Of a stretch of DNA of 64,000 nucleotides, positions 1 through 62,055 are shown piece after piece. The notes below the pieces were generated by a model. It saw only the letters and a list, made by a program, of their open reading frames with translations, was not told the DNA's origin and made no database searches. A program made the position numbers and the translations under genes. The DNA is from Azadirachta indica. Lineage: Eukaryota > Streptophyta > Magnoliopsida > Sapindales > Meliaceae. The stretch covers positions 10,487,368 through 10,551,367 of the forward strand of contig CM040453.1 in the NCBI GenBank assembly GCA_022749755.1. Reading direction: 5' to 3'. The first letter of the stretch is position 1. Every line of letters starts with the position of its first letter.

Positions 1-551
1 ATAAACATAAATGACATTGGAAGAACCATTACATATTTTACGAATAACCCTCGCAGGAGTTTTTGCCTCTATACTATTCTTTAAAGCCAGATTTCCTCTT
101 TCAAGCTTTTGATCTTCCATTTCGGTCTATTTGCTATCTTTGGATTTCCTTCTTGACCTGAATAAATCAATACATCACGAGACTTTGCGTCATTAGGATA
201 ACGTCCCAAATTAACAACACTTGTTGCCAATAATTTTCCACCCACGGCTGTCATATAGTCTATACCAGAGGAAAAAAGATGATGAAGACCAATCACATTT
301 AATTCACTCATCCATTGAAACTTATCACCCTCTTCTACTCCAGGGATTGAACCTAATCTATTGCTTGTGTTAATCCATTTTCCTTTACTTCGGAGAACCC
401 TTGCTGCCTTCAAAAGAATTTTACAGTTTCCTTTCTACACAATCCTGATGACTTTTCTGCTGCATGCTCTTGCTTGATCTTGTAAAACATCTCCTGAAAC
501 AAATTCAAAGTCTCCTTCACCTTATAACGTTCAAAATCAATTTCTGATTGT

Positions 552-770
552 AAATGAGCAAGATAAAGGATTTAAAGGCTTTCTCCGGAATCAGCGTCCG
601 AAAGTTAGTGTTGTTCGTACGTTTCCAGAAGGATGTGGACCGCTGGCCAGAGAGATTGACCACCATCACCAAGCCAAACCATTGGAGAAGACCACCACTT
701 TACCGAGCTCTGCGCCTAAGAAATGCCCTCCTCGAAGAAATTTGAAAGCATTGGCTGTAAGAAGAGATTT
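552..770. repeat. Inverted repeat, left arm (SRA gene 5' coding piece)
   Basis: This 219-bp stretch is the reverse complement of 808-1026 with about ten mismatches and no indel. It is the N-terminal coding part of the SRA gene, flipped relative to the pseudogene around it. At several mismatches it matches the intact paralogue at 47.5-47.7 kb better than the right arm does, so it probably came from a different paralogue. Confidence 0.95.
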
Positions 771-807
771 TTCTCTTTTGAACTTTGATTCCCACACACC
801 ATAAGGA

Positions 808-1026
808 AAATCTCTTCTTACAGACAATGCGTTCAAATTTCTTTGAGGAGGGTATTTCTTAGGCGCAGAGCTCGGTAAAGTGCTGGTCTTCTCCAGTGGT
901 TTGGCTTGGTGATGGTGGTCAATCTCTCTGGCCAGCGGTCCACATCCTTCTGGAAACGTACGAACAACACTAACTTTCGGACACTGATTCCGGAGAAACC
1001 CATTAAATCCTTTATCTTGGTCATTT
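808..1026. repeat. Inverted repeat, right arm (SRA gene 5' coding piece)
   Basis: This arm is in the native orientation (minus-strand coding) and pairs with 552-770 around a spacer of about 37 bp. A transcript through both arms would fold into a hairpin of more than 200 bp. Confidence 0.95.
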
Positions 1027-1049
1027 ACAAGTGGATTTAATGAAGCCAT

Positions 1050-1951
1050 TTTAAATTGACCGACAATCTCAATACGAAAGCAGAGTATCGCTTTTGCATA
1101 CATATACACATATGTGTATGTATGCATTCAACAAACCAAAAACGTGTTAGTTATTTGTCCATTAGCACATTTACATCAATTGAGTTTTGACATTATTAGT
1201 GAATACGAAATCAATTCGGTTTTGTTAGTTCATTACATTAATTAAAATTTGTATAATTAAACTTCACATTCATTAAACAATTAATGATTATACACAGTAA
1301 ATTCCTACCACACATAGAGGAAGAGAGAGAGTTGTTAGGTGAATGTCAATGTAACTTGTTAATTCAACTAAGAGTTGTACTATCTTTTGAAATAGGTTCC
1401 AAATTAAGAAATATATAATATAAATACTAAGTTTTAAAATTCAATTACATATCTATATTTTACAATTAAAAGTTAAACTTCAATATTTATAATTTCTCTT
1501 CTCAAAATAATTAATTATATTACAATGTAATAAGTTTAAGTGTATATTACAATGTAAACTCATTTATATGATTGATCAAAGAACGAATGATAATACATGA
1601 AATAAAAGTGTATTATTAATTTTATAACTTCTTATTTTAACTTTAAATTTTATGAATATTATATTTTATTACAATTTTTCATTAAATTTTTGTTCTATTA
1701 ACTGCCAATTTCAATTTACAAGGTATACATTACATTGGTAGGTTTATCTTTGATTTAGAAACATTGAAATTTAATAGTTTCAAAATAATTGTATGTATGA
1801 TATCATTTTTATATAGTTTAAAAATTTTATAAAATGATAGGTTTATATAGTATATAAATATTAATAAGGAATTGATTATAATTAATATATCGAAAAATCT
1901 ATGTCAATTCATGTTAATTTATTTACATATGCGCATAAATAAATTAATCTA
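1050..1951. other. AT-rich intergenic, upstream of SRA pseudogene
   Basis: This is the 5' flank of the minus-strand SRA pseudogene. It has a short alternating purine-pyrimidine tract near 1098-1125, also present upstream of the intact copy. The flank is conserved with copy 3 only to about 1520. I see no gene in it. Confidence 0.6.
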
Positions 1952-4659: not shown

Positions 4660-4950
4660 TTTACGGCCTTACATCAATTAATTTTAAAAAATAACTATGA
4701 TTCTTTTGTAAAACGAAATTTCACTTTAAATTATACTCATCTTTAAAAGAAGTTGAAATCTTTCTTATAAATATAAATACAAAATTTTCTTTTATTATTT
4801 CAGTAATTTTAATTTTTTTATTTTTAGTCTATAGTAGTAAAAATGAGCAAACGACAACTAGACCTATGTAGGATAGTCTGTGTGATATGTTGTAGTCATT
4901 TATTATATGGACATTTGCATTTAATTTTGTTAATTGACATTTATTTAGAT
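4660..4950. repeat. Internal tandem block A2
   Basis: This is the second copy of block A1, about 480 bp downstream. The short plus-strand ORF (MSKRQLDLCRIVCVICCSHL...) is again open, with mostly third-position or conservative changes. It may be a remnant of a once-coding microprotein or chance; there is no other support. Confidence 0.7.
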
Positions 4951-4959
4951 TTGATGTGA

Positions 4960-6480
4960 TATCTTTCTGTATGCAATTTCATACGAATCGTATAAATGAA
5001 CTAAATGATGATTAATGAAAAGGGAATAACCATTAGAGGTGTCCCCGCCCCATGTGAATGAGCATGAATTTGCAGTAAATTCTGGTGAATAAGGATATGT
5101 TGAACAGTTTCTATCATGAATGCAAATGCATAATTTAGAAAAGGATGTTTTCTAAAAGTTTTAAGTTTCTTGTTTTATCTTTGTGAATATAAAAAATTAT
5201 TTTTTCTAATTTTCAAGACTCTAGAGGCTGAGAGAAACAAGAGGAACTTGTTAATAATTAATTGAAAAATAATATGTAATATGAAATCTTAATAATTAAT
5301 TGAGTAATTGATAAAAGAAATAATAATAACAACAAGATTTAATTTATTCCATAACAAAAGATTAATCTCAATAATAAGATTTAACAACCTATTAGTATGA
5401 GACGCACGGCAATTTATTAATTTAGATTGATTATTATTGAATTCGACGCATTCTCAAAAATAACAAAGCGCCAACAAATATTTGCCTGCGTTGATAGTTT
5501 AGAAAGAAAGGAATTAAACTCCAACTTAATTAATTTATTAATATATCAATTGGAGTTAGAAAAATTTTATTTTTTGTCTCTTACTTTACAAGAAGAGAGA
5601 AAATCAATTAAATGCAAAAAATAAAAAATTATTTTCCTGCAACGTGCAAGAGATTTCAGAAATTTCTTTTAAAATTAAGTCAATCGAATGATTTGTTATG
5701 AAGAAAATTAACAAAAATCATGAGGATTAGCCATCTTATGACAATTAGAGTAGGTGGAATTAATTTGCCAAAATTGCATTGAGTACTGGGAATATTGATG
5801 TAAATGCTGGTATCAATTAAAAGTTAAATACTCTACATATTTGTATTACGTTAGACTTTATGACAAATTTATTTAAATAACTTTATGTAATGTAAGATAC
5901 CATACATTTCGTAATGAAAATTACCAAATAAGTATTTAAATTGGTTCTAATTTTATATGATTAGCTGAAACTTTTTACATCTGTAATTTTAAACTTTTAA
6001 GCTTATTTTTCAATTTTTAATGAAAGTTTTTATAAAAACGTACCTTCTGCAAATAATTTAGAAAACGTCCAACCAAATATATTTCATACTAGTATTTTTA
6101 TTTTTTAAAAATGCAACCAAAATAACGTGTAAATTATCCCAAACCCTTCAATTTATTTTCTAAATTTTAATTCATCTCTCTGATTTGTGTACTATTTTTA
6201 ACGTCTTTATGCTAAGGCATGGCTATATTTTTAAGAGAAGTCTAAATATAATTATTTTAATATTTAAAAAAGTTGTTTGTTTTTTAAATTATCTAAATAT
6301 TTGTTAAAAAAATTTAATGCAGTTGAGTAAAATGTTTCAACATACATTTGAATAAGTGAATTTTTAAATAAGGTTAATATTTTTTTTTTTTTTTAATACT
6401 ATTACCATTTTATTAATTTATTTATTAACAAATTAAAATTCTATCTAACCCATTTTTCTTTTACATTTATCGCTTTTCTT
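4960..6480. other. AT-rich stretch without recognised gene
   Basis: It holds a short open stretch at 5427-5624 (plus) that is conserved at 28822-29019 and 60999-61196 and partly at 52980-53107. Its translation is Lys/Glu/Leu-rich without a recognisable domain. An imperfect palindrome around 5519-5549 (ACTCCAA ... TTGGAGT) is present in all copies. I see no other structure. Confidence 0.4.
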
Positions 6481-10330: not shown

Positions 10331-11239
10331 CTATCCTAATCAACTGACATTTCTTAAAATACTACATATAACATACAAATGCGGTAAAAAAAAAAAACAT
10401 GAAGATTAGGATCACACAATTGACTAATAGACAAAAAGGTTGAGAGTGAGATTGGAATTAGAGAAATTAGATAAAATGACATGACCTAAATGACTAAACG
10501 TTGATAGTAAATCTATTTATAGTCTTAATAACAGGTAAATTAGGGAAGTAGATTTACAAGAAAAAATAGTAGAATCTACAATTACATGATTATTATTAGA
10601 AACTTCTTGAATGCATATCTCTTTGCTATATATGTTAACTTTTATACCATATAATACCTAATTGATTCGTTTTATCATATATGTTTAATTAAATATAAAA
10701 AACTCATAAAAGCTTATTGATTCATTTGTAATAATTAATATCGTGATATTGATACTTTAGGTAGCGAATTTTAAGACAAATATTAAGATAATCTTTTAAA
10801 AAAAAAAAAAAAATTTTTAAAATATAAACTAATTAACATTAATATCAAAAAAATATTGGCTTTATTTGCTATCCCTAATTACGGCTACAAAAAAACTTAT
10901 TTCTTTATAGTGATAGGGTTGTTACAATTTTAATTTTTATATATCTAATAAATTTAGAAGGTTGTCCATTTTTTAACTTTTTGACATAGTAAAAGTCACT
11001 TATTTTTACTGTAAAAATGTAGAAAAATATTTTAAAAATTAAATTTTTTGTGTCAATTTACTTACATATATATACATATATATATTCTATATGTTGATTC
11101 AATTAGTACAAGAGGTGTAAGTCCAAACTTCACGCATAATAAGTGGAGGGAGATTAGGTTACTTGTAATATTTATAAAAGAAATAATAAATTTATTTTTA
11201 TTTTATCACACGGTCTAAAAATTATTTTATACACATAAG
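10331..11239. other. AT-rich stretch downstream of GDSL pseudogene
   Basis: It holds several poly-A tracts (10387-10399 and 10798-10813) that vary between copies, and a TA-rich run near 11067-11090. No gene was recognised. Confidence 0.5.
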
Positions 11240-12400
11240 TCATTGACAAATACCAACTATAATTTGATTGAAAACCCATGTATTTGCAGCTTGGGTATAA
11301 TTTTATATTATCCAAGCTAATAAATTTGAAAGGGTTTGGGCAACCACCTCCAAATACGTGAGTTTCATTATTGCTTTCTTCGCAAAGCACAGCAGTTGGA
11401 TTCTGCTTATCTCCACTGCAGCAATAATCAAACGGATCCTCGAATCCTGCATCCATAAATAAATATTATTAACTTTTTAATATATATATATATTGACTTC
11501 ACAATATAATACATATAAAAAAGAATGTATAAATCAATACTCAAATTTCTTGCTTTGCTGATCAATGCATATTTTGCAGCATAAATATCAACATATTTGA
11601 TTGCAGCCCCTATCAATTTTGTCTTCAATGTGTTTATTTTTTTTTAAGCTATTTGTTGAATTCTAACGCAACGTCGTTGTAAGATTTGACGCAACCAACT
11701 TCATCGTGTAATGTTGAACTTCGATTAGGGATAACATAAAATGGCAAGCATCCTACAAGCCCTGTGTTATGTATCCAAAATGTTCGCCCTCCATGGTCTT
11801 GTTGATATATATTCTGAAAGTTATAACAGATTTGTTAATTATGATATTTTCGATAAATAATTTTTATAATTAATCACTTAGTGCTAATACTTACCTTTAG
11901 GGGTGGGCAGAAAAACCGATCTAAATCGAACCAGATCAGAATTTACGAGTTCAGTCTGGTGTTTTATGCAATTCGGTCCAGTTCGGTTTTTAAACTAAGA
12001 AATTTGAAATTTTCGTTCCAATTTCGGTTTTAGTCCAAAAATCCGGATCGGACCGAAAATATTATTTTTTAATATGTTTTCATCTAAACTACGTCGTTTT
12101 ATTGTATTTTCGTAAAATGACGTCCTTTAATGAAATGAAAAATTTTTTTAAAAAAAATATTTTTATTCAAAAACCAAACTAACTTGAAAATCGAACCGAT
12201 CGATTCGGTTTTATTTCAATTCTAACATATAATCGGTTCGGTCCGATCCTGCTCAAAAATTTGAAACCCGAAATTTTCAGGTTCGGTTCGATTATTTAAA
12301 ATTTCGGACCGAACCAAACCGTGCCCACCTCTACTTACCTTAATAGATGAAGCCAATTGATCAATAATGCCGCAATTATTAGGCGAATTTGATGCAAACT
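11240..12400 (-). pseudogene. GDSL esterase/lipase pseudogene, 3' half, copy 1
   Basis: Fragments of three exons of an ENOD8/fucosidase-like GDSL gene can be read on the minus strand. An upstream exon end (about 12400-12339) reads GIIDQLASSIK. The next exon (11813-11541) starts NIYQQDHGGRTFWIHNTG and continues through CVKSYNDVALEFN and AAIKYVDIYAAKY. The last exon (11446-11240) reads FEDPFDYCC ... CPNPFKFISLDNI. Introns have AG acceptors at both. The 5' half with the catalytic Gly-Asp-Ser-Leu block is missing. An in-frame TAG at 11649-11651 interrupts the middle exon. One extra T near 11303 shifts the frame just at the family's D-x-x-H block. It cannot encode an active esterase. Confidence 0.85.
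11898..12333. mobile_element. hAT-type MITE at the GDSL splice donor, copy 1
   Basis: This 436-bp non-coding element has terminal inverted repeats TAGGGGTGGGCA / TGCCCACCTCTA. It is flanked by a perfect 8-bp duplication CTTACCTT (11890-11897 and 12334-12341). Subterminal regions are rich in alternating GGTTCGGTT / AACCGAACC motifs and can pair. The 8-bp target duplication and these termini fit the hAT superfamily. It has no transposase. The duplicated 8 bp is, on the minus strand, the exon-intron boundary AAG|GTAAG of the GDSL gene. Confidence 0.88.
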
Positions 12401-23305: not shown

Positions 23306-23940
23306 CTATTTTGCCCTTAGCATGAACTTAAAAACTAGTTTATCGAATGGCCCTTCTTCATTCCAATAATCATCCACAAAGAACAAGTCATCATAAACAT
23401 AAATGACATTGGAAGAACCATTACATATTTTACGAATAACCCTCGCAGGAGTTTTTGCCTCTATACTATTCTTTAAAGCCAGATTTCCTCTTTCAAGCTT
23501 TTGATCTTCCATTTCGGTCTATTTGCTATCTTTGGATTTCCTTCTTGACCTGAATAAATCAATACATCACGAGACTTTGCGTCATTAGGATAACGTCCCA
23601 AATTAACAACACTTGTTGCCAATAATTTTCCACCCACGGCTGTCATATAGTCTATACCAGAGGAAAAAAGATGATGAAGACCAATCACATTTAATTCACT
23701 CATCCATTGAAACTTATCACCCTCTTCTACTCCAGGGATTGAACCTAATCTATTGCTTGTGTTAATCCATTTTCCTTTACTTCGGAGAACCCTTGCTGCC
23801 TTCAAAAGAATTTTACAGTTTCCTTACACAATCCTGATGACTTTTCTGCTGCATGCTCTTGCTTGATCTTGTAAAACATCTCCTGAAACAAATTCAAAGT
23901 CTCCTTCACCTTATAACGTTCAAAATCAATTTCTGATTGT

Positions 23941-24159
23941 AAATGAGCAAGATAAAGGATTTAAAGGCTTTCTCCGGAATCAGCGTCCGAAAGTTAGTGT
24001 TGTTCGTACGTTTCCAGAAGGATGTGGACCGCTGGCCAGAGAGATTGACCACCATCACCAAGCCAAACCATTGGAGAAGACCACCACTTTACCGAGCTCT
24101 GCGCCTAAGAAATGCCCTCCTCGAAGAAATTTGAAAGCATTGGCTGTAAGAAGAGATTT
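23941..24159. repeat. Inverted repeat, left arm, copy 2
   Basis: Identical in arrangement to 552-770. It pairs with 24196-24414 across a spacer of about 36 bp. Confidence 0.95.
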
Positions 24160-24195
24160 TTCTCTTTTGAACTTTGATTCCCACACCCATAAGGA

Positions 24196-24414
24196 AAATC
24201 TCTTCTTACAGACAATGCGTTCAAATTTCTTTGAGGAGGGTATTTCTTAGGCGCAGAGCTCGGTAAAGTGCTGGTCTTCTCCAGTGGTTTGGCTTGGTGA
24301 TGGTGGTCAATCTCTCTGGCCAGCGGTCCACATCCTTCTGGAAACGTACGAACAACACTAACTTTCGGACACTGATTCCGGAGAAACCCATTAAATCCTT
24401 TATCTTGGTCATTT
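24196..24414. repeat. Inverted repeat, right arm, copy 2
   Basis: Counterpart of 808-1026. The inverted repeat is preserved in both recent copies with no additional decay visible between the arms. Confidence 0.95.
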
Positions 24415-24437
24415 ACAAGTGGATTTAATGAAGCCAT

Positions 24438-26839
24438 TTTAAATTGACCGACAATCTCAATACGAAAGCAGAGTATCGCTTTTGCATACATATACACATA
24501 TGTGTATGTATGCATTCAACAAACCAAAAACGTGTTAGTTATTTGTCCATTAGCACATTTACATCAATTGAGTTTTGACATTATTAGTGAATACGAAATC
24601 AATTCGGTTTTGTTAGTTCATTACATTAATTAAAATTTGTATAATTAAACTTCACATTCATTAAACAATTAATGATTATAACACAGTAAATTCCTACCAC
24701 ACATAGAGGAAGAGAGAGAGTTGTTAGGTGAATGTCAATGTAACTTGTTAATTCAACTAAGAGTTGTACTATCTTTTGAAATAGGTTCCAAATTAAGAAA
24801 TATATAATATAAATACTAAGTTTTAAAATTCAATTACATATCTATATTTTACAATTAAAAGTTAAACTTCAATATTTATAATTTCTCTTCTCAAAATAAT
24901 TAATTATATTACAATGTAATAAGTTTAAGTGTATATTACAATGTAAACTCATTTATATGATTGATCAAAGAACGAATGATAATACATGAAATAAAAGTGT
25001 ATTATTAATTTTATAACTTCTTATTTTAACTTTAAATTTTATGAATATTATATTTTATTACAATTTTTCATTAAATTTTGTTCTATTAACTGCCAATTTC
25101 AATTTACAAGGTATACATTACATTGGTAGGTTTATCTTTGATTTAGAAACATTGAAATTTAATAGTTTCAAAATAATTGTATGTATGATATCATTTTTAT
25201 ATAGTTTAAAAATTTTATAAAATGATAGGTTTATATAGTATATAAATATTAATAAGGAATTGATTATAATTAATATATCGAAAAATCTATGTCAATTCAT
25301 GTTAATTTATTTACATATGCGCATATAAATAAATTAATCTATCAAAAAGTTTGGCTGTACAGATTCCGAAAGTAGTAGAGAAGTTGGTGCCATGTTTTAC
25401 AGGGATTTGCTTGGAGGTGAATGACATGAAGGAAGATCTGTTTCTGATAAAGAATATCAACGAGCTGACTGAAATTTTGTTGCAGCAAACTCTGGAGAAA
25501 TTTAAGGTAATTGTTGCAATTTTCGTTGGTGAAGCCTATCCTGTTTGAAGGAAGGAAATGATTGGTGAGTTTGGAGATAGTATGTAAGGATAGATGGCAG
25601 CTACTAAAATCAAAATTAGCGTATTTTTTATTTTTTAATTTTGTTATTATATTATTTTGTATTTTCATTTCTTAGATTTTTTTGTTGAAAAATAGAAACA
25701 TTAAAGAAAGAGTATAGTTAAGGTAAATTTATTTTAACGTTTAATCAGCTCCTTAAAATTAATCTTAATATTAACGATATTACTATTAAGAAAAAGTTTC
25801 TGTGAAGTTTTACAATTTTTTTATTTATATATAATTTTTATAAATTTTGGGGAGATATATAAAAACACCGTTCATTTATTATTTTATAAAAGTTCTTATA
25901 CATATATGTGTGTGTGTTCGAAATGGGCCAAAAGTCACTCTAAAATCAAGTCTATTGAGTTGGAGTAGCAAATAAGAGAGTTTTGGCCCAAAAAGAGACA
26001 AAAAGAAAAACAGGGGAAACTCAAATTTTTATAAATTTGGTCTGTCTTTTCAAATCAACAAAGGTGTCTTTTCAAATTTTAGAGAGAGGCTGGGTTTCAA
26101 GGTTGAGATTTGCTTGCAAGGTTCAAATCAACAAGGCCTCTTTTCCCCGACCGCCCCAATTTCTTATTTTCAAATTCAAATTTTGTTTGATTAAATTACT
26201 TCAATATTCATTTTATTTACTAAATAATTATAAAAGTTATATAACTTTATTTTACTCAAATAAGTCCTTCAAAAAAGTTGATAAATTTTTAATTTAATCA
26301 ATTAAGTCTCTTCTTATTATTTAGAGAGATCTTCAATTTAATCAATCTTTAAAAAAGTTTAAATTTATTTCTTAATAAAGAAATTTACTAAAATAATTGA
26401 AAACTAATAAAATTAAATAATTGTTAATAATTAAATTTACAAAAATAAATTTTGATAAAATAAAAATAATAAATTAATGTCAAACAAAATAATAATTTGT
26501 AATTAATGAATTTATCGTTATAATATAATAATATAAGATTTATAAACAAATAAATTCTTAAAGATTTTTCTCTATAGATTTCATTTTCTTATTTACCAAA
26601 CAAAATAATATTATGTAAAATTATCAAAAAATAAAAACTTTAATGTTAATTGAATAAATTTTTCTAACTTTATCAATTAATCTATTTAAAAATTATATCA
26701 TAATTTACTACTGCAATTATTTATTTTTTTTTTTATTTATATAGATTAATAAAAAAAAATATTATAGTAAATTTATCAATCAAAATTAATATTTTGTTCT
26801 AAAATTTTATTATTAGCTATAATATTTTATATAAATTTA
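24438..26839. other. Copy 2 counterpart of 1050-3440
   Basis: It contains the exon-like fragment at 25351-25548 (plus) and the GC-richer patch at about 25920-26160. No further gene was seen. Confidence 0.5.
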
Positions 26840-27584: not shown

Positions 27585-30500
27585 TACATCAATTAATTTT
27601 AAAAAAATAAATGTGTTTTCTTTTGCAAAACGAAATTTCACTCACAATTATATTTATCTTTAAAAGAAGTTCAAATCTTTATTATAAACATAAATACAAA
27701 ATTTTCTTTTATTATTTCAGTAATTTCAATTTTTTTAATTTAGTTTATAGTAGTGAAAATGAGCAAACGACAACTAGACCTATGTAGGATAGTTTGCGTG
27801 ATATGTTGTAGTCATTTATTCTATGGACATTTGCATTTAATTTTTTTAGTTGGCATTTATTTGGATTTAAGAAAAAATTTAGTCAAAGAAAGTTAAATTT
27901 ATTTGTTTTTCTTTCAATTAATGCAACCTCATCAATTAATATTCAATATTCTATAATTCGTACTAAAAAAAATTAAGCATGCAATAAAAGAGTTAAAAAA
28001 ATGTCGCTATCAAGTTGTCAATTATTTTATCAAAATTTAATTTAAAAAAATTTAGTTTACGGCCTTACATCAATTAATTTTAAAAAATAACTATGATTCT
28101 TTTGTAAAACGAAATTTCACTTTAAATTATACTCATCTTTAAAAGAAGTTGAAATCTTTCTTATAAATATAAATACAAAATTTTCTTTTATTATTTCAGT
28201 AATTTTAATTTTTTTATTTTTAGTCTATAGTAGTAAAAATGAGCAAACGACAACTAGACCTATGTAGGATAGTCTGTGTGATATGTTGTAGTCATTTATT
28301 ATATGGACATTTGCATTTAATTTTGTTAATTGACATTTATTTAGATTTGATGTGATATCTTTCTGTATGCAATTTCATACGAATCGTATAAATGAACTAA
28401 ATGATGATTAATGAAAAGGGAATAACCATTAGAGGTGTCCCCGCCCCATGTGAATGAGCATGAATTTGCAGTAAATTCTGGTGAATAAGGATATGTTGAA
28501 CAGTTTCTATCATGAATGCAAATGCATAATTTAGAAAAGGATGTTTTCTAAAAGTTTTAAGTTTCTTGTTTTATCTTTGTGAATATAAAAATTATTTTTT
28601 CTAATTTTCAAGACTCTAGAGGCTGAGAGAAACAAGAGGAACTTGTTAATAATTAATTGAAAAATAATATGTAATATGAAATCTTAATAATTAATTGAGT
28701 AATTGATAAAAGAAATAATAATAACAACAAGATTTAATTTATTCCATAACAAAAGATTAATCTCAATAATAAGATTTAACAACCTATTAGTATGAGACGC
28801 ACGGCAATTTATTAATTTAGATTGATTATTATTGAATTCGACGCATTCTCAAAAATAACAAAGCGCCAACAAATATTTGCCTGCGTTGATAGTTTAGAAA
28901 GAAAGGAATTAAACTCCAACTTAATTAATTTATTAATATATCAATTGGAGTTAGAAAAATTTTATTTTTTGTCTCTTACTTTACAAGAAGAGAGAAAATC
29001 AATTAAATGCAAAAAATAAAAAATTATTTTCCTGCAACGTGCAAGAGATTTCAGAAATTTCTTTTAAAATTAAGTCAATCGAATGATTTGTTATGAAGAA
29101 AATTAACAAAAATCATGAGGATTAGCCATCTTATGACAATTAGAGTAGGTGGAATTAATTTGCCAAAATTGCATTGAGTACTGGGAATATTGATGTAAAT
29201 GCTGGTATCAATTAAAAGTTAAATACTCTACATATTTGTATTACGTTAGACTTTATGACAAATTTATTTAAATAACTTTATGTAATGTAAGATACCATAC
29301 ATTTCGTAATGAAAATTACCAAATAAGTATTTAAATTGGTTCTAATTTTATATGATTAGCTGAAACTTTTTACATCTGTAATTTTAAACTTTTAAGCTTA
29401 TTTTTCAATTTTTAATGAAAGTTTTTATAAAAACGTACCTTCTGCAAATAATTTAGAAAACGTCCAACCAAATATATTTCATACTAGTATTTTTATTTTT
29501 TAAAAATGCAACCAAAATAACGTGTAAATTATCCCAAACCCTTCAATTTATTTTCTAAATTTTAATTCATCTCTCTGATTTGTGTACTATTTTTAACGTC
29601 TTTATGCTAAGGCATGGCTATATTTTTAAGAGAAGTCTAAATATAATTATTTTAATATTTAAAAAAGTTGTTTGTTTTTTAAATTATCTAAATATTTGTT
29701 AAAAAAATTTAATGCAGTTGAGTAAAATGTTTCAACATACATTTGAATAAGTGAATTTTTAAATAAGGTTAATATTTTTATTTTTTTAATACTATTACCA
29801 TTTTATTAATTTATTTATTAACAAATTAAAATTCTATCTAACCCATTTTTCTTTTACATTTATCGCTTTTCTTTGTTTGGTTTTTTAGGTGAAATTCAAA
29901 AGATTCAAAAAATTTAGAAGTTTCCTTAAAATTTTAGACAATCGATTCTATTCAATCTAACGATAAAGATAGCTAACTTACAAGTTGGTTTTATTAAATG
30001 CTAATTAGAATTATATAAGTACATTTATTAAATTTTTCTCTTAAAATAGAGAGTTTGTCAAAATTTGTAATTAAGATTTTAGAAAAAAATAATTTCACCC
30101 TTTAGAGAATCAAAATGAAGGCACTGTTGGTTCCTCAGAAATAACTTCTTTATATGTAATTTTGTGAATATGGATTGAAAATTATTGCAGCCAATAAATA
30201 AATATTACTTGAGTAATTAATTATGAGATTGATGTTAATTGTCATTATTTGCAACTAATAAGATCTCATCAGTTTGTATTTAATTTAATAGGAATTACTT
30301 TGATAATTTTTCTTCTCTTTTCTTCATTAATATTTTAAACTTAAATTAAACCTAAATGCATTCGTGGTTTCATTTCTCTGTTGATAGTTTAGAAAACAAG
30401 AAAATTAATCACTAAATTTCATCAGCCTAATCCCACATGTATTTTTTTGCGCTGAACACATGTAATGTATATTTCTGCTCAACCAGAAAGAAGAAGATGA

Positions 30501-34640: not shown

Positions 34641-35805
34641 TCATTGACAAATACCAACTATAATTTGATTGAAAACCCATGTATTTGCAGCTTGGGTATA
34701 ATTTATATTATCCAAGCTAATAAATTTGAAAGGGTTTGGGCAACCACCTCCAAATACGTGAGTTTCATTATTGCTTTCTTCGCAAAGCACAGCAGTTGGA
34801 TTCTGCTTATCTCCACTGCAGCAATAATCAAACGGATCCTCGAATCCTGCATCCATCCATAAATAAATATTATTAACTTTTAATATATATATATATTGAC
34901 TTCACAATATAATACATATAAAAAAGAATGTATAAATCAATACTCAAATTTCTTGCTTTGCTGATCAATGCATATTTTGCAGCATAAATATCAACATATT
35001 TGATTGCAGCCCCTATCAATTTTGTCTTCAATGTGTTTATTTTTTTTTAAGCTATTTGTTGAATTCTAACGCAACGTCGTTGTAAGATTTGACGCAACCA
35101 ACTTCATCGTGTAATGTTGAACTTCGATTAGGGATAACATAAAATGGCAAGCATCCTACAAGCCCTGTGTTATGTATCCAAAATGTTCGCCCTCCATGGT
35201 CTTGTTGATATATATTCTGAAAGTTATAACAGATTTGTTAATTATGATATTTTCGATAAATAATTTTTATAATTAATCACTTAGTGCTAATACTTACCTT
35301 TAGGGGTGGGCAGAAAAACCGATCTAAATCGAACCAGATCAGAATTTACGAGTCAGTCTGGTGTTTTATGCAATTCGGTCCAGTTCGGTTTTTAAACTAA
35401 GAAATTTGAAATTTTCGTTCCAATTTCGGTTTTAGTCCAAAAATCCGGATCGGACCGAAAATATTATTTTTTAATATGTTTTCATCTAAACTACGTCGTT
35501 TTATTGTATTTTCGTAAAATGACGTCCTTTAATGAAATGAAAATTTTTTTTAAAAAAAATATTTTTATTCAAAAACCAAACTAACTTGAAAATCGAACCG
35601 ATCGATTCGGTTTTATTTCAATTCTAACATATAATCGGTTCGGTCCGATCCTGCTCAAAAATTTGAAACCCGAAATTTTCAGGTTCGGTTCGATTATTTA
35701 AAATTTCGAACCGAACCAAACCGTGCCCACCTCTACTTACCTTAATAGATGAAGCCAATTGATCAATAATGCCGCAATTATTAGGCGAATTTGATGCAAA
35801 CTCTC
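34641..35805 (-). pseudogene. GDSL esterase/lipase pseudogene, 3' half, copy 2
   Basis: Exon pieces are at about 35805-35741, 35216-34944 and 34846-34641. Unlike copy 1, the last exon stays in frame to its stop (FISLDNINYTQAANTWVFNQ). However, the family's catalytic D-x-x-H has become D-N-I-N, so the histidine is lost. The TAG in the middle exon is shared with copy 1. The 5' half is absent. Confidence 0.85.
35301..35735. mobile_element. hAT-type MITE at the GDSL splice donor, copy 2
   Basis: 435 bp with the same terminal repeats and the same 8-bp CTTACCTT duplication (35293-35300 and 35736-35743) as copy 1. Confidence 0.88.
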
Positions 35806-46718: not shown

Positions 46719-47705
46719 CTATTTTGCCCCAACATTAAATCTTCTTAGCATGAACTTAAAAACTAGTTTATCGAATGGCCCTACTTCATTCCAATAATCA
46801 TCCACAAAGAACAAGCCATCATAAACATAAATTACATTGGAAGAACCATTACGTATTTTACGAATAACCCTCGCAGGAGTTTTTGCCTCCATACTATTCT
46901 TTAAAGCCAGATTTCCTCTTTCAAGCTTTTGATCCTCTATTTCGGTCTTATTTGCTATCTTTGGATTTCCTCCTTTACCTGAATAAATCAATACATCACG
47001 AGACTTTGCGTCATTAGGATAACGTCCCGAATTAACAACACTTGTTGCCAATAATTTCTCACCCACGACTGTCATATAGTCTATACCAGAGGAAAAAAGA
47101 CGATGAAGACCAATCACATTTAATTCACTCATCCATTGAAACTTATCACCCTCTTCTACTCCAGGGATTGAACCTAATCTATTGCTTGTGTTAATCCGTT
47201 TTCCTTTACTTCGGAGAACCCTTGCTGCCTTCAAAAGAATTTTTACAGTTTCCTTTCTACACAATCCTGATGACTTTTCTGCTGCATGCTCTTGCTTGAT
47301 CTTGTAAAACATCTCCTGAAACAAATTCAAAGTCTCCTTCACCATATGACGTTCAAAATCAATTTCTGATTGTTTAACGTTCACAATTTCTTTAGACTCA
47401 CTTCTGACCTCCACTGTAGATTTATTCTTGTCTTTTGAACTTTGATTCCCACACCCATAAGGAAAATCTCTTCTTACAGACAATGCTTTCAAATTTCTTC
47501 GAGGTGGGTATTTCTTAGGCGCAGAGCTCGGTAAAGTGGTGGTCTTCTCCAATGGTTTGGCTTGGTGATGGTGGTCAATCTCTCTGGCCAGCGGTCCACA
47601 TCCTGCTGGAAACGTACAAACAACACTAACTTTCGGACGCTGATTCCGGAGAAATCCTGTAAATCCTTTATCTTGCTCATTTACAAGTGGATTTAACGAA
47701 GCCAT
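46719..47705 (-). CDS. SRA/YDG-domain protein, SUVH5/6-like without SET domain
   Basis: An intronless, uninterrupted frame of 328 codons. I chose the Met at 47703-47705 (MASLNPLVNE); the open frame continues 29 codons upstream, but that part is a TA/CA simple tract resembling 5' UTR. Residues 25-37 (KVSVVCTFPAGCG) and about 74-86 (LSVRRDFPYGCG) match the repeated N-terminal motifs of SUVH5/6 proteins. Residues about 117-140 form a charged helix (FERHMVKETLNLFQEMFYKI). The SRA domain spans about 175-325 with GSIPGVEEGDKFQ, GIDYM, DVLIYSG, DQKLERGNLALKNS, the YDG triplet and KLVFKF. In SUVH proteins this domain binds methylated DNA. The pre-SET/SET domains of an H3K9 methyltransferase are absent; the stop follows the SRA directly. 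It may be a reader or a dominant competitor, but activity is inferred only. It is the only intact gene here. Confidence 0.88.
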   Translation of the reverse strand: MASLNPLVNEQDKGFTGFLRNQRPKVSVVCTFPAGCGPLAREIDHHHQAKPLEKTTTLPSSAPKKYPPRRNLKALSVRRDFPYGCGNQSSKDKNKSTVEVRSESKEIVNVKQSEIDFERHMVKETLNLFQEMFYKIKQEHAAEKSSGLCRKETVKILLKAARVLRSKGKRINTSNRLGSIPGVEEGDKFQWMSELNVIGLHRLFSSGIDYMTVVGEKLLATSVVNSGRYPNDAKSRDVLIYSGKGGNPKIANKTEIEDQKLERGNLALKNSMEAKTPARVIRKIRNGSSNVIYVYDGLFFVDDYWNEVGPFDKLVFKFMLRRFNVGAK

Positions 47706-59553: not shown

Positions 59554-62055
59554 TTTTTTACATCAATGCATACGTTAAATGGTTATTTATATTGATTTGA
59601 AAAATTAACAAAATTATTATATAGATGTGGCGAATTCTTGGCCAATACTTATCCTTTGATGATAATATATTTAGTTAAAACTCGTTAATTATAATTATAT
59701 ACAATCGTTTATTTGTAGGAGTTGACACATTAATTAGTACATTAATTAATGACAAAATTTTAAAATCAACCAGTTTAGTTTACGGCCTTACATCAATTAA
59801 TTTTAAAAAAATAAACATGATTCTTTTGTAGAACGAAATTTCACTCACAATTATATTCATTTTTAAAAGAAGTTGAAATCTTTATTATAAACATAAATAC
59901 AGAGTTTTCTTTTATTATTTCGGTAATTTCAATTTTTTAATTTTAGTTTATAGTAGTGAAAATGGGCAAACGACAACTAGACCTATGTAGGATAGTTTGC
60001 GTGATATGTTGCGGTCATTTATTCTATGGACATTTGCATTTAATTTTGTTAGTTGGCATTTATTTAGATTTTAAAAAAAAATTAGTCAGAGAAAGTTAAA
60101 TTTATTTATTTTTTCTTTAATTAATGCAACCTTATCAACTAATATTCAATATTCTATAATTCGTACTAAAAAAATTAAGCATGCAATAAAAGAGTTAAAA
60201 AAAATGTCATTATCAAGTTGTTAATTATTTTGTCAAAATTTAATTTAAAAAAAACTAGTTTACGGCCTTACATAAATTAATTTAAAAAAATAACTATGAT
60301 TCTTTTGTAAAACGAAAACGAAATTTTACTTACAATTATACTCATCTTTAAAAGAAGTTAAATTTTTATTATAAATATAAATACAAAATTTTCTTTTATT
60401 ATTTCAGTAATTTTATTTTTTTATTTTTAGTTTATAGTAGTGAAAATGGGTAAACGACAACTAAACCTATTAAGGATAGTCTGTGTGATATGTTGTAGTA
60501 ATTTATTCTATGGACATTTGCATTTAATTTTGTTTGGCATTTATATAGATTTGATATGATATCTTCCTGCAATTTCATACGAATCGTATAAATGAACCGA
60601 ATGATGATTAATGAAAAGAGAATAAGCATTAAAGGTGTCCCCGCCCTATGTGAATGAGCATGAATTTGATGTTGAACAGTTTCTATCATGAATGCAAATG
60701 CATAATTTAGAAAAGGATGTTTTCTGAAAGTTTTAAGTTTCTTGTTTTGTCTTTGTAAAAATATAAAAATTATTTTTTCTAGTTTTGAAGACTCTAGAGA
60801 CTGAGAGAAACAGAGGAACTTGTTAATAATTAATTGAAAAATAATATGTAATATGAAATCTTAATAATTAATTGAGTAATTGATAAAAGAAATAATAATA
60901 ACAACAAGATTTAATTTATTCCATAACAAAAGATTAATCTCAATAATAAGATTTAACAACCTATTAGTATGAGACGCACGGCAATTTATTAATTTAGATT
61001 GATTATTATTGAATTCGACGCATTCTCAAAAATAACAAAGCGCCAACAAATATTTGCCTGCGTTGATAGTTTAGAAAGAAAGGAATTAAACTCCAACTTA
61101 ATTAATTTATTAATATATCAATTGGAGTTAGAAAAATTTTATTTTTTGTCTCTTACTTTGCAAGAAGAGAGAAAATCAATTAAATGCAAAAAATAAAAAA
61201 TTATTTTCCTGCAACGTGCAAGAGATTTCAGAAATTTCTTTTAAAATTAAGTCAATAGAATGATTTGTTATGAAGAAAATTAACAAAAATCATGAGGATT
61301 AGCCATCTTATGACAATTAGAGTAGGTGGAATTAATTTGCCAAAATTGCATTGAGTACTGGGAATATTGATGTAAATGCTGGTATCAATTAAAAGTTAAA
61401 TACTCTACATATTTGTATTACGTTAGACTTTATGACAAATTTATTTAAATAACTTTATGTAATGTAAGATACCATACATTTCGTAATGAAAATTACCAAA
61501 TAAGTATTTAAATTGGTTCTAATTTTATATGATTAGCTGAAACTTTTTACATCTGTAATTTTAAACTTTTAAGCTTATTTTTCAATTTTTAATGAAAGTT
61601 TTTATAAAAACGTACCTTCTGCAAATAATTTAGAAAACGTCCAACCAAATATATTTCATACTAGTATTTTTATTTTTTAAAAATGCAACCAAAATAACGT
61701 GTAAATTATCCCAAAACCTTCAATTTATTTTCTAAATTTTAATTCATCTCTCTGGTTTGTGTACTATTTTTAACGACTTCATGCTAAGGCGTGGCTATAT
61801 TTTTAAGTGAAGTCTAAATGTAATTATTTTAATATTTAAAAAAGTTGTTTGTTTTTTAAATTATCTAAATATTTGTTAAAAAAATTTAATGCAGTTGAGT
61901 AAAATGTTTCAACATACATTTGCATAAGTGAATTTTTAAATAAGGTTAATATTTTTATTTTTTAATACTATTAACATTTTATTAATTTATTTATTATCAA
62001 AATTAAAATTCTATCTAACCCATTTTTCTTTTACATTTATCACTTTTCTTTGTAA

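What the first reader, a model, noticed from the sequence alone, without database searches (positions are those of the whole stretch)
552..1026. SRA pseudogene contains a 219-bp inverted repeat of its own coding sequence
Arms 552-770 and 808-1026 pair with about ten mismatches and no indel around a loop of about 37 bp (seen). Transcription across them would give a long hairpin RNA whose stem matches the 5' coding part of the intact SRA gene at 47.5-47.7 kb. In plants such hairpins feed DCL enzymes and can direct silencing and DNA methylation of homologous loci. In Arabidopsis the PAI inverted repeat is a model for this, and SUVH-class proteins act there. A SUVH-like gene that may be policed by a hairpin made from itself would be a self-referential epigenetic circuit (inference).
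Basis: partly seen in the sequence, partly recalled or inferred. Interest (0 to 1): 0.8.

Follow-up and report, generated by a model that had tools for sequence, protein, structure and literature searches.

The report
Hairpin-forming pseudogene of SRA-only gene
In a plant genome, probably neem, a dead copy of a gene carries part of itself copied back in reverse, so its RNA could fold into a long hairpin and silence the living gene; such hairpins are a known kind, and nothing here shows that this one works.

Summary
The inverted repeat is real. Arms 552-770 and 808-1026 differ at 10 of 219 positions, no indel, 37-nt loop; full arms are 548-774 and 804-1030 (11 of 227 differ). Both match codons 7-82 of an SRA-only gene whose open copy lies at 46719-47705 (-). 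One event explains it: a 227-nt inverted templated insertion replacing about 50 bp, with 4-nt microhomology at one junction. Segmental duplication copied it: the genome search found three copies with identical arms, two here in 23.4-kb tandem units and one on what is probably the alternative haplotype, which appears to lack the 24 kb holding the open gene.

A transcript would fold extremely well (-408 kcal/mol). I found no sequence sign of function: arms differ from the open gene no less than flanking pseudogene DNA (20/454 versus 36/1134), no pair is clearly compensated, and mutations show no methylation footprint in the arms; these tests are weak. The gene has SRA but no SET, so it is not an SUVH methyltransferase. 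The proposed circuit has a published precedent: the VIM4-VIM2 inverted repeat of SRA-domain genes in Arabidopsis Cvi-0. Best reading: a neutrally decaying hairpin pseudogene, a plausible but untested siRNA source. New member of a known kind.

The parts
548..774 (+). Arm 1: inverted copy of the SRA gene's N-terminal coding sequence (codons 7-82), coding sense on +; antisense in a transcript from the pseudogene's own 5' flank
   Evidence: 227 nt, 8 differences from 47460-47686
775..803 (.).
804..1030 (-). Arm 2: original-position copy of the same coding sequence, gene sense on -
   Evidence: 12 of 227 differences from the open gene
1..547 (-). Remainder of the pseudogene: SRA-domain region, frameshifted and with stops; runs past the window start
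   Evidence: 15 of 547 aligned sites differ from 46821-47369
1031..1618 (-). Retained 5' flank of the pseudogene (possible promoter); 21 of 587 aligned sites differ from the open gene's flank, plus 26 gap columns
23937..24418 (.). Second copy of the hairpin pseudogene, arms identical to the first, 1-nt indel in the loop
1..23392 (.). First ~23.4-kb tandem unit, repeated from 23393 on (98.9% over 24 kb)
46719..47705 (-). Open SRA-only gene, 328 aa from the first ATG, one uninterrupted frame; the only full-length open copy at this level of identity in the list
47460..47686 (-). Segment of the open gene matched by both arms
47374..47423 (-). About 50 bp present in the open gene that the inverted insertion replaced in the pseudogene copies

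Best explanation
This is a duplicated SRA-only gene disabled, among other lesions, by one inverted templated insertion. During replication or break repair, synthesis left the gene at the equivalent of 47373, copied 227 nt of the same (or a sister) gene's 5' coding sequence backwards, and rejoined at the equivalent of 47424, losing about 50 bp (anatomy shown; repair route inferred). Segmental duplication then spread the pseudogene (shown). If the retained 5' flank is still transcribed, the RNA folds into a stem of about 227 bp (fold computed) that DCL enzymes would probably cut into siRNAs able to match the open gene (inferred from the pathway, not tested). Sequence evidence, though weak, favours a by-product decaying neutrally over a selected silencer.
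For: Junctions: at the first, acceptor and donor share TTGT; about 50 bp is missing. The C9 paralogue and the Melia azedarach protein have the uninterrupted order. Three copies found, arms identical (0 of 227), with small loop indels. Tandem units at 98.9%. Neutral decay: arms differ from the open gene at 20 of 454 sites, flanks at 36 of 1134 (Fisher p 0.23; changes on the open gene's own branch count twice in the 20, so the sites are not independent). The arms differ from each other at 11 of 227; in the gene-sense transcript 1 of these is a G-U pair and 10 are mismatches. Fold -408.3 kcal/mol, z -40.
Against: No RNA, small-RNA or methylation data were available, so absence of function is not shown. 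Neutral decay over a short time does not exclude siRNA production. One site (182) changed in both arms and keeps its pair: most simply a change before the inversion, but a compensated pair or arm-to-arm conversion is not excluded. One site (135) groups arm 1 with the open gene against arm 2 and C9, so cis or sister-copy origin of arm 1 is unresolved. The second junction is not clean.
Confidence: 0.72

Rival explanations
1. Active silencing hairpin: the pseudogene is transcribed, its stem is diced and the siRNAs cleave the mRNA of the open SRA gene, and perhaps methylate it or act on the C9 paralogue, as at PAI, GmIRCHS or VIM4-VIM2.
For: Perfect stem run of 86 bp; arm 1 (antisense in the gene-sense transcript) shares 102 of 207 21-mers with the open gene, longest run 95 nt; arm 2 has a 26-nt perfect match to the C9 paralogue. 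5' flank retained. Published inverted repeats of this kind are active. CpG observed/expected is slightly lower in the pseudogene (0.63) than in the window (0.72).
Against: No expression data. No excess conservation of arms or pairing. Transitions are not enriched in arm pieces (9 of 22) over flanks (24 of 36); differences at CpG are similar (5 of 22 against 7 of 36); the open gene's CpG ratio (0.70) is near the window's (0.72). The presumed alternative haplotype keeps a hairpin while no open gene was found there.
Confidence: 0.2
2. Young MIRNA gene in the making, by inverted duplication of its target.
For: Foldback with extended homology to a target-family gene, the starting state of the inverted-duplication model (PMC3237417, abstract and one section read).
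Against: Stem far longer and more perfect than a mature MIRNA precursor (recalled); no Rfam match in the window at gathering score; no test here could show a conserved mature duplex.
Confidence: 0.04
3. Sequencing or assembly artefact (fold-back chimeric read).
For: Long reads can fold back (recalled); the assembly seems to hold unpurged haplotigs.
Against: Arms differ at 11 of 227 sites, the structure recurs at three assembled places with different loops, and a ~50-bp loss accompanies it.
Confidence: 0.02
4. Transposon-type inverted repeat (MITE).
For: Inverted repeats near genes are often MITEs (recalled).
Against: Arms are coding sequence of an SRA gene; the genome search (16 matches, counts are lower bounds) placed them only at C14 SRA copies and the C9 paralogues.
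Confidence: 0.02

Closest known systems
Arabidopsis Cvi-0 VIM4-VIM2 inverted repeat (PMC13213937; abstract, passages and one results section read)
   Same: Inverted repeat of SRA-domain genes, homologous to intact family members, at a locus thought to be shaped by non-allelic recombination
   Different: Two genes head to head with a shortened spacer; siRNAs, a VIM1 cleavage tag and cis methylation were measured. Here: 227 bp inside one pseudogene of an SRA-only gene, nothing measured
Arabidopsis PAI1-PAI4 inverted repeat (review PMC3431836, passages read)
   Same: Gene-derived inverted repeat with homologous singlet genes
   Different: Tail-to-tail genes, methylation in trans shown; SUVH4/5/6 act as effectors, not as target
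Soybean GmIRCHS (I locus) beside ICHS1 (PMC13051633, abstract read)
   Same: Inverted repeat of a pseudogene clustered with a family member, in a region prone to deletions of tens of kb
   Different: Natural RNA silencing with a visible phenotype is established there
Rice pseudogene hairpins (PMC2708354, passages read)
   Same: Inverted pseudogene sequences predicted to form a 185-nt duplex, with mapped small RNAs
   Different: Two adjacent pseudogenes and a 1,283-nt loop; no small RNAs seen from the parent gene in that example
Snapdragon SULF / Mimulus YUP (review PMC12371187, passages read)
   Same: Taxon-specific small-RNA loci from incomplete or inverted gene duplication
   Different: Reported with targets and flower-colour effects
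Short-range template-switch mutations (PMC7954356, passages read)
   Same: The four-point anatomy: leave, copy inverted, return
   Different: Gold-standard great-ape inserts there have median 12 and maximum 128 nt; this one is 227, so break-repair synthesis may fit better

Membership tests
Endogenous hairpin-siRNA locus (PAI / GmIRCHS / VIM4-VIM2 type) | Long, nearly identical inverted arms with short spacer | tested here: met
   227-nt arms, 11 differences, 29-nt spacer
Endogenous hairpin-siRNA locus (PAI / GmIRCHS / VIM4-VIM2 type) | Stem homologous to an intact gene elsewhere | tested here: met
   47460-47686: 8 and 12 of 227 differences; 102 and 52 of 207 shared 21-mers
Endogenous hairpin-siRNA locus (PAI / GmIRCHS / VIM4-VIM2 type) | Transcript reading through both arms | not testable with these tools
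   No RNA reads; the retained 5' flank is only permissive
Endogenous hairpin-siRNA locus (PAI / GmIRCHS / VIM4-VIM2 type) | 21-24-nt siRNAs from the stem | not testable with these tools
   No small-RNA reads
Endogenous hairpin-siRNA locus (PAI / GmIRCHS / VIM4-VIM2 type) | Silencing or methylation of the homologous gene in trans | not testable with these tools
   No expression or bisulfite data; mutation pattern gives no support
MIRNA gene born by inverted duplication | Foldback arms with extended homology to the target gene | tested here: met
MIRNA gene born by inverted duplication | A conserved mature duplex while the rest of the stem decays | tested here: inconclusive
   11 differences over 227 nt leave an 86-nt perfect run, but three copies with identical arms cannot show conservation
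SUVH histone methyltransferase | SRA domain | tested here: met
   PF02182, E 3.6e-43
SUVH histone methyltransferase | Pre-SET and SET domains | tested here: not met
   Only SAD_SRA found in the 357-aa frame, which ends just after it
SRA-only (YDG-domain-containing, At5g47150-like) proteins | SRA domain alone with N-terminal extension, no SET | tested here: met
   best hit a 387-aa Melia protein with PF02182 alone; 4 of 63 hits bear the name At5g47150-like

The most novel reading that the evidence does not exclude
The hairpin is transcribed and its siRNAs repress an SRA-only family in trans, through the open C14 gene and, by the 26-nt perfect match, the conserved C9 paralogue. Because hairpin and target seem to vary in copy number between haplotypes (2 hairpins + 1 open gene against 1 hairpin + none found), trees would differ in the dose of silencer and target: a second, independent evolution of RNAi against an SRA-domain gene, after VIM4-VIM2.
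Probability: 0.1. Interest if true: 0.6.

Novelty: new member of a known kind. Interest (0 to 1): 0.36.

Why it matters
It is a clean example of how a hairpin-capable locus is born in what looks like a single mutation inside a gene duplicate, before any proof of function, beside a homologous open gene and with apparent haplotype differences in both. If siRNAs were found, it would be a second case, in another plant order (species inferred) and another SRA family, of an SRA-domain gene exposed to RNAi by an inverted repeat of itself. If none were found, it would be a useful negative: a near-perfect hairpin that is silent.

Tried and rejected
Rfam scan of the window: 0 matches at gathering score. 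Of 28 stop-to-stop frames of 85 aa or more 7 are SRA-derived; 5 of the other 21 were scanned against Pfam, no family at E 0.1. A plasmid search of one of them was uninformative. MITE, artefact and MIRNA readings were weighed and set low (see rivals). A methylation footprint was sought through transitions, CpG differences and CpG content; none appeared in the arms, but counts are small. Cis versus sister-copy origin of arm 1 could not be resolved. In the 3' part, of 15 differences between open gene and pseudogene, 9 fall on the open gene (6 non-synonymous, 3 synonymous), 4 on the pseudogene (all would change the amino acid) and 2 are unpolarised; this does not separate selection from drift. The alternative-haplotype reading was probed with four further pieces: one supports it (L046), one supports it only for its first 4.5 kb (L044), one matches fetched DNA at no more than about 94% (L045), and one (L047) had no match of 500 bp or more in the DNA compared; the counterparts of the last two may not have been fetched. 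Ten literature searches; no row listed concerned this locus, but only named neem and none combined it with SRA genes or hairpins, so I make no claim that it is unpublished.

Full report
WHAT IS THERE. The window is part of a plant genome assembly (280,826,157 bases in 21 contigs), at C14:10487368-10551367. No tool names the species. The nearest protein to the open gene is from Melia azedarach (62%), a C9 paralogue in the same genome is 85% identical to that Melia protein, and the size is close to the published neem (Azadirachta indica) assembly of 281.6 Mb on 14 chromosomes, which however lists 70 scaffolds (PMC9069239, passages read). I take it to be neem, by inference.

THE INVERTED REPEAT. 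Extended, they are 548-774 and 804-1030, 227 nt with 29 nt between and 11 differences. Folded as the gene-sense RNA, 540-1060 gives -408.3 kcal/mol; 100 shuffles average -134.7 and none reaches it. Apart from its own copy at 23937-24418, no other inverted pair in the window passed a filter of 80 bp, 3 kb and E 1e-6.

WHAT THE ARMS ARE. Both arms match 47460-47686 of an open frame on the minus strand (46719-47705, 328 aa from the first ATG): 8 differences for arm 1 and 12 for arm 2, of 227. That is codons 7-82; the SRA domain lies further on (residues 206-352 of the 357-aa frame, Pfam PF02182, E 3.6e-43), and no other Pfam domain was found, so it is an SRA-only protein. The best solved relatives by sequence are SUVH6 and SUVH5. 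By a Nei-Gojobori count, dN/dS between the open gene and its C9 paralogue is 0.48 (bootstrap 0.37-0.73, 200 replicates), which indicates some constraint over the pair's whole history; the few changes since the pseudogene split are not informative.

HOW IT AROSE. The pseudogene follows the open gene from 46821 to 47373, then runs through the inverted 227 nt, then resumes at 47424. At the first junction acceptor and donor share TTGT. At the second, the alignments overlap by 8 nt with mismatches, so microhomology there is unclear. The C9 paralogue and Melia have the uninterrupted order, so the inversion is derived. This is the leave-copy-return pattern of template switching. The insert is longer than the maximum in a great-ape set (128 nt; PMC7954356, passages), so synthesis-dependent break repair is as likely. 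Polarised with C9, the 15 variable sites among arm 1, arm 2 and open gene are: arm 2 alone 6, arm 1 alone 3, open gene alone 3, shared by both arms 1, arm 1 with open gene against arm 2 and C9 1, three-state 1. With only one change shared by both arms, the inversion most simply came soon after, or together with, the split from the open gene's lineage.

COPIES AND HAPLOTYPES. The genome search (its counts are lower bounds) found the repeat at three places, all on C14, with identical arms (0 of 227 differences) and loop indels. Two are in the window's 23.4-kb tandem units (98.9% over 24 kb). The third, at 21.77 Mb in opposite orientation, lies in what is probably the alternative haplotype left in the assembly: DNA about 26 kb to one side of it matches DNA about 50 kb from the window's second copy at 99.5-99.8% (three blocks totalling about 6.1 kb). 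Chunk-wise comparison shows that sequence switching from unit A/B to unit 3 near 28480 / 52630, inside a 1.55-kb block repeated at 95%. The skipped 24 kb contains the open SRA gene, and the 24-kb difference in spacing agrees. On the other side the 99.6% match ends about 14 kb from the repeat and falls to 93-94% (L044, L045), so further rearrangement, or a less simple history, is present there. Read simply, one haplotype has two hairpins and the open gene, the other one hairpin and no open gene found. This rests on an assembly of a tandem array and needs checking.

TESTS FOR FUNCTION BY SEQUENCE. (a) Arms against open gene: 20 differences in 454 sites; flanks of the pseudogene: 36 in 1134; Fisher p 0.23, in the direction of less conservation in the arms. 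The two arms share the open gene's own changes, so the 20 are not independent. (b) Of the 11 arm-arm differences, 1 is a G-U pair and 10 are mismatches in the gene-sense transcript (4 and 7 on the other strand). Site 182 changed in both arms and keeps its pair; a change before the inversion explains it most simply, but compensation or conversion is not excluded. (c) Transitions: 9 of 22 in the arm pieces (the arm-2 piece includes loop sequence), 24 of 36 in flanks, p 0.06, opposite to a methylation footprint; differences at CpG are 5 of 22 and 7 of 36; CpG observed/expected is 0.70 in the open gene, 0.63 in the pseudogene and 0.72 in the window. These are weak tests over a short time, but none favours a maintained hairpin. 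(d) Targeting capacity: arm 1 shares 102 of 207 21-mers with the open gene, arm 2 shares 52; with C9 the figures are 0 and 6, the 6 from one 26-nt run.

COMPARISON WITH WHAT IS KNOWN. Gene-derived inverted repeats that make small RNAs are a known kind: PAI (PMC3431836, passages), soybean GmIRCHS (PMC13051633, abstract), rice pseudogene pairs (PMC2708354, passages), SULF and YUP (PMC12371187, passages), and the inverted-duplication model of MIRNA birth (PMC3237417, abstract and one section). The closest is the VIM4-VIM2 inverted repeat of Arabidopsis Cvi-0: SRA-domain genes of the methylation pathway give siRNAs, with a cleavage tag in VIM1 mRNA, modest non-CG methylation at VIM2/3/4, none at VIM1, and a proposed link to low CG methylation genome-wide (PMC13213937, abstract, passages and one results section). 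GmIRCHS is the closest in architecture: an inverted pseudogene clustered with a relative, in a region where deletions of 17-38 kb are reported.

VERDICT. The mechanism proposed is plausible and untested. I put about 0.35-0.4 on some siRNA being made in some tissue (judgement), 0.2 on consequential silencing of the open gene, and less on selection for it. It is a new member of a known kind, with extra value as a clean single-event origin and an apparent haplotype difference that would make a natural dosage test.

Noticed in passing
C14:10.49 Mb and 21.77 Mb; C9:9.67 and 15.99 Mb; C6:0.93-0.94 and 5.85-5.86 Mb: SRA loci recur as pairs on the same contig, near-identical where compared (C9, C14), as unpurged haplotigs would. 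The neem paper reports a 165-Mb k-mer estimate against 281 Mb assembled, 0.896% heterozygosity and a Ks peak at about 0.01; part of that peak may be haplotigs.
   Followed up: partly
window 28480 / 52630; L006 about 4700-6263: Recombination breakpoint of the presumed alternative haplotype inside a 1.55-kb repeated block, skipping 24 kb with the open SRA gene.
   Followed up: partly
window 1-64000 and flanks L010-L012: The region is an AT-rich (25.5% GC) array of ~23-kb units of different ages (long blocks about 92-99%) with little coding capacity beyond SRA copies: the 3 frames of 120 aa or more with ATG/GTG/TTG start are SRA-derived; stop-to-stop, one other of 142 aa at 60432-60860 has no Pfam match.
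   Followed up: partly
C14:10379102-10379749 (L015): 5'-truncated SRA copy, open for 224 codons, 92% identical to residues 141-357 of the window's frame, without the arm region.
   Followed up: no
window 11172-11465 (-) and 34641-34901 (-): Short frames that by eye resemble the end of a GDSL esterase/lipase (recalled motif); Pfam gave no match at E 0.1, so unconfirmed.
   Followed up: partly
window 666-1127 (-) and 24105-24515 (-): The pseudogene copies keep open frames of 153 and 136 aa that run from before the old start codon through arm 2 and the loop into antisense arm 1, giving chimeric C-termini.
   Followed up: no
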